Source: Legionella lansingensis (GTDB taxonomy: Bacteria > Pseudomonadota > Gammaproteobacteria > Legionellales > Legionellaceae). From it: a stretch of 64,000 nucleotides of DNA. Shown piece by piece: positions 61,586 to 64,000 of this stretch. A model generated the notes under the pieces. It saw nothing but the letters and a program-made list of their open reading frames with translations, did no database searches and had not been told where the DNA came from. The number at the start of each line of letters is the position of its first letter. The first letter of the stretch is position 1. Where the stretch lies: assembly GCF_900187355.1 (NCBI RefSeq), contig NZ_LT906451.1, positions 2,706,001 to 2,770,000 on the forward strand, in the 5' to 3' direction. A program made the position numbers and the translations under genes.

Positions 61586-64000
61586 ATGGATTGTCTGAAA
61601 ATGCCGAAATCAAAATGGGAATTTTGGATTGACCGCGGAGGCACTTTTACCGATATTGTCGCACGCTCCCCCCAAGGAAAGATCATCAGTCATAAATTAT
61701 TATCCGAACATCCAGAGCGCTACGACGATCCTATTATTCAAGGTATTCGAGATGTTCTGAATCTCAACACCAATGAGCCAATCTCAGGAAAAGAGATCGC
61801 GATGATCAAGATCGGAACAACCTTGGCGACTAACACTTTATTAGAACGGAAAGGAGAAAAAGTGGTATTGGCCATTACCCAGGGATTTGGTGATGCTCTG
61901 CGCATTGGTTACCAAAATCGTCCTGATCTTTTTGCTTTGAATATTGTGTTACCTCCTTTGCTTTATGACAAAGTCATAGAAATTGAAGAACGTGTAGGAG
62001 CTCATGGCGAGATTTTAAAGCGCTTGGATGGGCAAAAAACAACACAGGCATTGCAAGTTGCTTATCAAAAGGGCTATCGAGCTATCGCCATTGTTCTTAT
62101 GCATGGATATCGCTATCACCATCATGAAAAGCAGCTAAGAAAAATAGCTAAGCAAATCGGTTTCCAGCAAATTTCTGTCAGTCATGAAGTAGCTCCCGTG
62201 ATGAAACTCGTTGGCCGTGGTGATACCACTGTTGTTGATGCCTATCTCTCGCCGGTCTTGCAACGTTATATCCAATCATTGCAAAAAACGCTAAAACATC
62301 TCCCCTTATTATTCATGCAATCAAACGGGGGTCTTGCTGAAGCCCGATTTTTTAGAGGGAAAGAAAGTATTTTCTCAGGACCAGCTGCTGGCGTGATCGG
62401 CATGGTTAAAACAAGCCAACTTGCCGGATTTAAGAAGGTCATTGGCTTTGATATGGGAGGCACATCGACAGATGTTTCTCATTTTGCTGGAGAGTATGAG
62501 CGCAGTTACATTAGCGAATTTGCTGGCGTTCGGCTACAAACCCCTATGATGTTGATACATACTATTGCTGCAGGTGGCGGTTCCATCCTCCATTTTGATG
62601 GTAGTCGCTATATTGTTGGTCCAGACTCAGCGGGTGCAAATCCTGGTCCCAGCTGCTATGGTCGAGACGGCCCACTGACCATTACTGACTGTAATGTAAT
62701 AGTCGGTAAAATCCAAGCGGATTTTTTCCCCCAGGTGTTCGGCCCTCAAGGCGGTAAAGCCATCGATGTAGCCATCGTTCGTAAGAAATTTGCACAATTA
62801 ACCGCCGAAATCAACCAGGCAACTGGAGGACAGCAAACACCAGAGCAAGTAGCTGAAGGTTACCTCCATATTGCTGTTGAAAACATGGCAAACGCTATCA
62901 GACGAATTTCCGTGCAGCGTGGTTATGATGTCAGCCAATATTTGTTAAATTGTTTTGGGGCTGCCGCAGGTCAACATGCTTGCCTGGTTGCTGACAGGTT
63001 AGGGATAAAACGTATTTTGATTCATCCTCTAGCCGGTGTTCTATCCGCCTATGGTGTAGGTTTAGCTGAGCTCAGAATCCTAAAAGAATGCCCTATTGAA
63101 CAACCACTCAAACAAGCCATGGAAGCAGTGCTAAAGCTTAAATTAACAGAGCTAGAAGAGCAAAATCAAAACGCATTGCAAGCACAAGGGATGCAAACCG
63201 ACACAATGATCCACACCCGACGCATTCATCTTCGCTATGATGGCTCTGATACGATGCTAACGGTGGAATTTAGTGCGATTGCTTCGATGCGCAAAGCCTT
63301 TGCTTTAGAGCACCGCAGGCAATTTGGTTTTGCTTCTGCACAAAAAAGCTTAATCATTGAAGCTGTTTCAGTGGAGACAGTCCTTGCAACGCAAATGATT
63401 GTAGAAAAGGATTGTGATCTGGTTCACCGCCCTCAAAAAGAAATACCAGTCAGTAAGGTAGTATCACTGTTCAGCCATAGTCGCACCCATCAAGCACCCA
63501 TCTACCATCGTCAGGATTTACAACCAGGCGATTGTATTCAGGGCTGTGCTATCATCTGTGAAAACAATGCCACAACGATCATTGAACCCGGATGGCAAGC
63601 TCATGTCACGGAAAAAAATCACCTTCTATTAACGCGTTATCAACCTCTACCCAAACAAAAGATAACAAGAACCAGCGTTGATCCTGTCTTGCTCGAGGTT
63701 TTTAATAATCGTTTTATGAATATTGCCGAGCAAATGGGTGAAGTCTTACGGAATACAGCAAGTTCCGTCAATATTAAGGAGCGTCTGGATTTTTCCTGTG
63801 CGATTTTTGACAGCCAGGGAGAGCTGGTGGCCAACGCACCTCATATTCCGGTCCATCTTGGCTCCATGAGTGAGAGTGTTAAAAGTATCCTTAACGCAAC
63901 TACTCGCTTATTGCCGACTTCCCGCGGCTTGACCACGGGATCCAGCGAACTTGCCAGATCCATTGATCCCGCGGTCAAGCCGCGGGAAGTCGGCGATATA
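61586..64000 (+). CDS. 5-oxoprolinase / hydantoinase HyuA-HyuB fusion, 3' end outside window
   Basis: Open from ATG 61586 (or 61601) to the window edge, at least 805 codons. The HyuA half has FWIDRGGTFTDIVA near the N-terminus, FMQSNGG, SGPAAGVIG and the actin-fold ATP motif GFDMGGTSTDVSHF. The HyuB half begins around residue 690 (VDPVLLEVFNNRFMNIAEQM, then RLDFSCAIFDSQGELVANAP). The family hydrolyses 5-oxoproline or hydantoins with ATP. After VHLGSMSESVKSIL, where PGDVY-type sequence is expected, a family A palindrome is inserted in frame. The neighbouring racemase-fold gene supports a hydantoin/oxoproline role. No Shine-Dalgarno is visible. Confidence 0.88.
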   Translation, partial: MDCLKMPKSKWEFWIDRGGTFTDIVARSPQGKIISHKLLSEHPERYDDPIIQGIRDVLNLNTNEPISGKEIAMIKIGTTLATNTLLERKGEKVVLAITQGFGDALRIGYQNRPDLFALNIVLPPLLYDKVIEIEERVGAHGEILKRLDGQKTTQALQVAYQKGYRAIAIVLMHGYRYHHHEKQLRKIAKQIGFQQISVSHEVAPVMKLVGRGDTTVVDAYLSPVLQRYIQSLQKTLKHLPLLFMQSNGGLAEARFFRGKESIFSGPAAGVIGMVKTSQLAGFKKVIGFDMGGTSTDVSHFAGEYERSYISEFAGVRLQTPMMLIHTIAAGGGSILHFDGSRYIVGPDSAGANPGPSCYGRDGPLTITDCNVIVGKIQADFFPQVFGPQGGKAIDVAIVRKKFAQLTAEINQATGGQQTPEQVAEGYLHIAVENMANAIRRISVQRGYDVSQYLLNCFGAAAGQHACLVADRLGIKRILIHPLAGVLSAYGVGLAELRILKECPIEQPLKQAMEAVLKLKLTELEEQNQNALQAQGMQTDTMIHTRRIHLRYDGSDTMLTVEFSAIASMRKAFALEHRRQFGFASAQKSLIIEAVSVETVLATQMIVEKDCDLVHRPQKEIPVSKVVSLFSHSRTHQAPIYHRQDLQPGDCIQGCAIICENNATTIIEPGWQAHVTEKNHLLLTRYQPLPKQKITRTSVDPVLLEVFNNRFMNIAEQMGEVLRNTASSVNIKERLDFSCAIFDSQGELVANAPHIPVHLGSMSESVKSILNATTRLLPTSRGLTTGSSELARSIDPAVKPREVGDI
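63909..63998 (+). repeat. Family A palindromic element in frame inside the 5-oxoprolinase gene
   Basis: Near-perfect palindrome: TATTGCCGACTTCCCGCGG at the left, and CCGCGGGAAGTCGGCGATA at the right. The 78-bp core is 63915-63992. It is translated GLTTGSSELARSIDPAVKPR, almost identical to the peptide from the lbtC copy, in the same frame, with no stop codon. The element sits at the HyuB start region. Confidence 0.9.

What the first reader, a model, noticed from the sequence alone, without database searches (positions are those of the whole stretch)
63909..63998. Second in-frame copy, in the middle of the 5-oxoprolinase gene, in the same reading frame
Two insertions in unrelated genes choose the same one of six frames and give peptides differing at only about five of 20 positions. 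The element is almost perfectly palindromic, so orientation gives little bias, yet the frame and lack of stops are kept. It lies between HyuA-like and HyuB-like parts, a likely tolerant surface point.
Basis: partly seen in the sequence, partly recalled or inferred. Interest (0 to 1): 0.85.

Follow-up and report, generated by a model that had tools for sequence, protein, structure and literature searches.

The report
Translated palindromic inserts in Legionella genes
A short hairpin-forming mobile repeat has dropped into several ordinary genes of a Legionella species without breaking them, as is known in Rickettsia, and larger copies carry a small DNA-cutting enzyme that may be what moves this kind of repeat.

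Summary
Observation confirmed. The frame continues past the window edge to a natural stop (1245 aa), and 33 of 33 aligned homologues lack exactly the 39 extra residues. This is not a two-copy curiosity: the core half-site occurs 110+113 times in this 2.99-Mb Legionella genome against 0+1 for a control. Copies lie in frame inside PurQ, MnmC, Lhr, a FabA/FabZ-like protein and an MFS transporter, and form C-terminal tails of LysC-LysA and a PseG fusion. The shared frame is explained by stops: in four copies checked, all 16 alternative frames hold stops. The element fits CGTC-tagged REP dimers, the superfamily that holds Rickettsia RPE-4: a known kind in a new host. Unexpected: a ~0.6-kb copy with matching arms carries a GIY-YIG nuclease gene (a second is perhaps truncated), and GIY-YIG genes elsewhere in Pseudomonadota are often flanked by CGTC REPs. 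Published work says CGTC REPs lack a dedicated transposase. GIY-YIG nucleases are a good candidate mover; movement is inferred, not shown.

The parts
61586..64000 (+). 5-oxoprolinase/hydantoinase gene (HyuA-HyuB fusion); continues to 65323 beyond the window
63896..64000 (+). inserted subfamily A palindromic element; its right end is about 64019, outside the window; bounds by matching the outer arms of other copies
63915..63944 (+). left REP-like unit: CGAC tag, 9-bp stem, CTTGA loop, CCA tail
   Evidence: read from the sequence against the layout in PMC3733652
63963..63992 (-). right REP-like unit, mirror of the left one; tail CAA instead of CCA in this copy
   Evidence: read from the sequence against the layout in PMC3733652
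35079..36386 (+). MFS transporter gene with an in-frame N-terminal copy (best NCBIfam hit FslD, below its cut-off)
35100..35222 (+). subfamily A element in the MFS gene
37736..37837 (.). palindromic copy of another subfamily (CCGTGG arms); 37788-38105 is only a mechanical ORF

Best explanation
The insert is a non-autonomous palindromic mobile element: two CGTC-type REP hairpins facing each other inside longer inverted ends, an RPE-4-like coding palindrome that has spread through this Legionella genome. It was inserted into the gene and is now part of the reading frame as 39 extra residues. It is tolerated because the net gain is a whole number of codons and because one peptide frame, readable from either strand of the palindrome, is free of stops; copies in other frames would truncate proteins and be removed. 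Shown: copy number, homologues without the insert, intact frames, stop pattern, RPE4 model match, arms shared between short copies and a longer copy that carries a GIY-YIG nuclease gene. Inferred: translation in vivo, purifying selection, and that GIY-YIG nucleases encoded by longer copies act at REP hairpins and mobilise the short ones.
For: Frame intact to the natural stop. 33 of 33 homologues have 4 residues where this protein has 43; MnmC insert absent in 20 of 20 and FabA/FabZ-like insert absent in 17 of 17 relatives aligned. 110 and 113 half-sites against 0 and 1. Six of 12 subfamily A copies lie in genes in the same peptide frame against 5 of 95 other places (Fisher p 0.0002). Stop pattern. 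RPE4 model over its cut-off in oxoprolinase, MnmC and MFS and at 779954, the LysC-LysA copy; rare elsewhere (2 of 398 genomes; 0 of 14 controls). GIY-YIG copy shares about 53-nt arms with short copies.
Against: No expression or protein data. RPE4 score is below the cut-off for PurQ (20.7) and GspK (21.6) against 23.95, and no RPE4 match was listed for the FabA/FabZ-like, HlyD-like or Lhr proteins (one search shows only the best 25). Element length plus 8 nt is a multiple of three in 4 of 8 copies measured, and its 132 bp for this copy differs from the 117 bp net gain, so ends and target duplication are not settled. Two intergenic copies have an open frame outside the common one. Subfamily A has no GIY-YIG-bearing copy among the loci seen. 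The N-terminal cases HlyD-like, GspK, PPK1 and CcmH may start downstream of the element.
Confidence: 0.82

Rival explanations
1. Ordinary disrupting insertion: the gene is a pseudogene and the open frame is luck.
For: Only a sequence is available; function after insertion is not shown.
Against: The 1245-aa frame and all its Pfam domains are complete, and several other genes keep their frames through the same element.
Confidence: 0.05
2. The element has been shaped by selection to encode a harmless peptide, so its open frame is an adaptation rather than a by-product that survives by filtering.
For: An intergenic copy (833784) keeps the common frame free of stops on both strands and another (1236201) on one strand.
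Against: Other subfamilies often carry a TGA in the RPE4 frame, and filtering alone explains the genes. Few intergenic subfamily A copies exist to test it.
Confidence: 0.15
3. GIY-YIG genes are hitchhikers: homing-type nucleases that insert at pre-existing REPs, and do not move them.
For: 15 of 398 sampled genomes have at least 10 CGTC REPs and no GIY-YIG hit; 29 of 48 GIY-YIG loci had no strict CGTC unit within 300 bp, this genome's own two among them; subfamily A lacks a partner among the loci seen.
Against: REPs sit on both sides in 13 of 48 loci and mostly with tags outward (31 against 10 within 150 bp), as expected for the ends of one element; GIY-YIG copies and empty short copies share whole arms.
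Confidence: 0.35

Closest known systems
Rickettsia palindromic element RPE-4 (NCBIfam TIGR03777; CGTC-4 REP of R. conorii)
   Same: Palindrome of about 100-150 bp, in frame in unrelated conserved genes, peptide matches the RPE4 model (layout and class from PMC3733652 and PMC3767692, passages and one section read).
CGTC-tagged REPs, including intragenic ones (Di Nocera et al. 2013, PMC3733652)
   Same: 9-bp stem, 5-nt loop, CCA tail, dimers, occasional place inside genes.
   Different: Tag reads CGAC in this copy and CGTA/CGTG in the GIY-YIG copies; embedded in longer inverted ends; a GIY-YIG gene between arms, whereas the paper reports no associated transposase.
Coxiella QMITE1/QMITE2 (PMC5896051)
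   Same: Palindromic mini-elements of a related gammaproteobacterium, with some in-frame insertions (passages).
   Different: Not compared at sequence level here; no nuclease partner mentioned in the passages seen.
REPIN-RAYT (GTAG REPs with tyrosine transposase)
   Same: Proposed logic: REP dimers moved in trans by an enzyme encoded between REPs.
   Different: Tag is CGTC-like, not GTAG; the candidate enzyme is a GIY-YIG nuclease.

Membership tests
Rickettsia palindromic element RPE-4 | palindromic repeat of about 100-150 bp in many copies | tested here: met
Rickettsia palindromic element RPE-4 | inserted in frame in unrelated protein genes | tested here: met
Rickettsia palindromic element RPE-4 | encoded peptide matches the RPE4 model over its cut-off | tested here: met
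   oxoprolinase 25.6, MnmC 24.4, MFS 24.4 against 23.95; PurQ 20.7 below
Rickettsia palindromic element RPE-4 | found in Rickettsia | tested here: not met
   genome is a Legionella by its nearest named relatives; hence called RPE-4-like, not an RPE
Rickettsia palindromic element RPE-4 | inserted peptide at a solvent-exposed site | not tested
   structure job never ran (nine busy answers)
CGTC-tagged REP | 8-9 bp stem, 4-5 nt loop, CCA tail | tested here: met
   left unit of this copy read against the published layout; right unit has CAA
CGTC-tagged REP | CGTC tag (TGTC or CCTC variants) | tested here: inconclusive
   CGAC in this copy; other copies in this genome read CGTC
MITE with target-site duplication | terminal inverted repeats | tested here: met
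   GTAACTRCTCG-type ends shared by copies
MITE with target-site duplication | short direct repeat of the target | tested here: inconclusive
   imperfect 7-8 nt flanking repeats at some copies, by eye
REPIN-RAYT | RAYT gene in the genome | not tested
   no search made for it

The most novel reading that the evidence does not exclude
GIY-YIG nucleases are the missing dedicated enzymes of CGTC-tagged REPs. A REP-GIY-YIG-REP unit is the complete element; short palindromic dimers (the Legionella coding palindromes, perhaps Rickettsia RPE-4/6 and Neisseria dRS3) are its internally deleted followers; coding palindromes are the survivors of their insertion into genes.
Probability: 0.5. Interest if true: 0.85.

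Novelty: new variant of a known kind. Interest (0 to 1): 0.62.

Why it matters
In-frame palindromes are best known from Rickettsia, with scattered cases in other bacteria including Coxiella. Here an RPE-4-like family does it in Legionella, in core genes. More important, CGTC REPs were reported in 2013 to lack a dedicated transposase. A nuclease gene found between such REPs in many species gives a concrete enzyme to test and could make a large, widespread class of bacterial repeats tractable.

Tried and rejected
Rejected: pseudogene reading (frame and domains intact); special frame targeting (stops explain it); insert at the HyuA/HyuB junction; a known RNA family (no Rfam hit in 34900-64000). 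Led nowhere: DNA comparison of one sister copy with plasmids (no match); Rickettsia RPE-4 DNA could not be fetched or read, so the link to RPE-4 rests on the protein model and on the text of the papers; structure prediction. The inverted-repeat test (18 of 48 above the 99% null) was set aside because its null pairs share REPs.

Literature, held open-access library only, searches: among the titles listed I saw none that joins GIY-YIG with REPs or reports coding palindromes in Legionella. Lists were partial (20 of 47, 15 of 107,512, 20 of 22, 10 of 12 and 12 of 45). The ten papers and the two were judged by title and not opened. Most subscription papers are not held. Papers seen: passages of PMC5896051, PMC2229807, PMC10969869, PMC3767692; passages and section 6 of PMC3733652; the rest listings. 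Ogata 2000 and 2002 only as citations. REPIN-RAYT is partly recalled.

Dropped rows: of 59 GIY-YIG loci fetched, one fragment (L321) was not entered and 10 cut by contig ends were dropped, leaving 48. Three of 109 places were judged chance half-sites in ordinary genes (69653, 628027, 2658189). Subfamily A was assigned by eye; one of its 12 copies (2660477) is not among the 109. One search left out 4 FabA/FabZ-like and 1 MnmC relatives that a motif filter missed. One search aligned 34 of 41 HyuB references. One search listed 100 of 110 forward places. 16 of 34 plasmid-collection records were opened. In one search two of ten copies could not be bounded.

Full report
WHAT IS THERE. The palindrome at 63909-63998 is real and is read in frame in a 5-oxoprolinase/hydantoinase gene starting at 61586. 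DNA beyond the window keeps the frame to a stop ending at 65323; Pfam finds Hydant_A_N, Hydantoinase_A, Hydantoinase_B and a weak Hydant_A_C. An alignment with 33 homologues shows 43 residues here against 4 in each of the 33, a gain of 39 codons. The insert lies inside HyuB (residues 770-812; domain 699-1245), not between HyuA and HyuB, where 7hk5 has 5 residues between aligned segments.

A LARGE FAMILY. The genome is a Legionella by the nearest named relatives of this gene (L. jamestowniensis 70%, L. brunensis 74%), one contig of 2.99 Mb. The core half-site, with up to 3 mismatches, occurs 110 and 113 times on the two strands against 0 and 1 for the backward control. In 88 stretches I listed 109 places, 59 with both arms. 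They fall by eye into several subfamilies with different outer arms; subfamily A, that of the finding, has 12 copies. 13 of 22 genus genomes, this one included, have some match to the element DNA.

COPIES INSIDE GENES. Six of 12 subfamily A copies lie in genes in the same peptide frame: oxoprolinase, PurQ (with a C-terminal part that is PurS-like by my reading only), MnmC, Lhr helicase (a diverged copy), an MFS transporter (N-terminus) and LysC-LysA (C-terminal tail). Of 95 other places 5 lie in genes with a family match: a FabA/FabZ-like protein, and near the N-termini of HlyD-like, GspK, PPK1 and CcmH proteins, where the start codon is uncertain (Fisher p 0.0002). A copy outside the 109 forms the tail of a protein with PseG (over cut-off) and a PseH-like acetyltransferase part (below cut-off). 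MnmC relatives lack the insert in 20 of 20 aligned, FabA/FabZ-like relatives in 17 of 17. None of 15 PurQ relatives aligned has the peptide, but this linker is variable and one relative has a different long linker. Of 30 same-strand neighbour pairs within 150 bp of a copy I tested the 10 closest by Pfam: no gene cut in two was seen, though 2 of the 20 ORFs had no match. Twenty pairs were not tested.

WHY ONE FRAME. Eight copies could be bounded. In oxoprolinase, MFS, PurQ and MnmC the frame used has no stop, and the four frames per copy outside the common one have 1-4 stops each (16 of 16). In two intergenic copies one such other frame is open. The LysC-LysA copy has a stop in the common frame, which there ends the protein. 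Element plus an assumed 8-nt duplication is a multiple of three in 4 of 8 copies; for MnmC it is 132 bp, matching the 44-residue gap against G001, while for this finding's copy it is 132 bp against a net gain of 117 bp, so ends and duplication are not settled. Loss of truncated genes is enough to explain the shared frame.

WHAT KIND OF ELEMENT. NCBIfam's RPE4 model scores above its cut-off (23.95) in oxoprolinase, MnmC and MFS, and below it in PurQ and GspK. By six-frame search it has 68 matches at E up to 0.01 here, 29 in G012, some in 7 of 22 genus genomes (over the cut-off in 4) and none in 14 controls. In 398 Pseudomonadota genomes only this one and one other matched at E up to 0.001. PMC3733652 classes R. 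conorii RPE-4 as a CGTC-4 REP with a 9-bp stem, 5-nt loop and CCA tail, and reports REPs, often dimers, inside genes of several species. The Legionella unit fits with a CTTGA loop. PMC3767692 reports RPE-4 in frame in conserved R. japonica genes. So the finding is an RPE-4-like CGTC-REP dimer in a new host.

THE POSSIBLE MOVER. A copy of about 0.6 kb (305205-305806) carries a GIY-YIG ORF between arms (PF01541, E 1e-14); a second (about 1902190-1902790) matches only residues 17-95 of it, and a third GIY-YIG stretch at 702190-702467 is broken. The arms match those of short copies: 44 of 54 with the FabA/FabZ-like copy, 44 of 52 with the PseG one, with alignment scores of 34 and 33 against at most 13 in 200 shuffles each. 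Relatives of the protein occur in 15 of 22 genus genomes and 118 of 398 phylum genomes. In 48 loci with full flanks, strict CGTC units lie within 300 bp on at least one side in 19 and on both in 13, against 1 and 0 of 96 pseudo-genes in the same loci; within 150 bp 31 point outward and 10 inward. By group it is 5 of 22 in Legionella and 14 of 26 elsewhere. 29 of 48 have none, among them this genome's own two loci, whose tag is CGTA/CGTG and escapes the strict rule. In 16 named records it is 11 on either side and 8 on both, with 9 units also 600 bp or more away. Across the 398 genomes, 51 of 118 with GIY-YIG have at least four CGTC REPs against 24 of 280 without (odds ratio 8.1, p 1e-14); within one family of 74 genomes 13 of 20 against 12 of 54 (6.5, p 0.0009) (the reversed pattern gave zero in every row listed). 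REPs that flank the gene add to these counts, shared ancestry is not removed, and 15 REP-rich genomes lack a hit.

VERDICT. The thing itself is a new variant of a known kind. The GIY-YIG link is the part a specialist would not expect; ten searches of the held library listed no paper joining the two. That the nuclease moves the repeats is inferred, not shown.

Noticed in passing
46050-46115 and 47955-48020: 66-nt direct repeats, 91% alike, on either side of a 504-aa ORF (46416-47930).
   Followed up: no
59378-59509 and 61504-61577: Two pairs of about 40-nt direct repeats, 90% alike, one beside and partly in the 3' end of the ORF at 59383-60582 and the other just before the oxoprolinase gene.
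   Followed up: no
6444-6474: A single-hairpin repeat (TACCATGGCTTAACCACGGTA) resembling half of the CCGTGG subfamily palindrome at 37736-37837.
   Followed up: partly
L212 and L031: The oxoprolinase gene of one relative (G001; also L. brunensis L031) shows a shorter longest ORF (862 aa), with a stop read through in the HyuB match of G001.
   Followed up: no
L417 and L426: GIY-YIG genes sit between sufB and sufC in Azospirillum lipoferum, and a GIY-YIG match lies between rnc and era in Sphingomonas paeninsulae (there without strict CGTC units).
   Followed up: partly
L415: A Planktothrix plasmid has a GIY-YIG gene between a type IIL restriction enzyme gene and the DISARM helicase drmA, with GTCATTCTGAG-type repeats beside it.
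   Followed up: no
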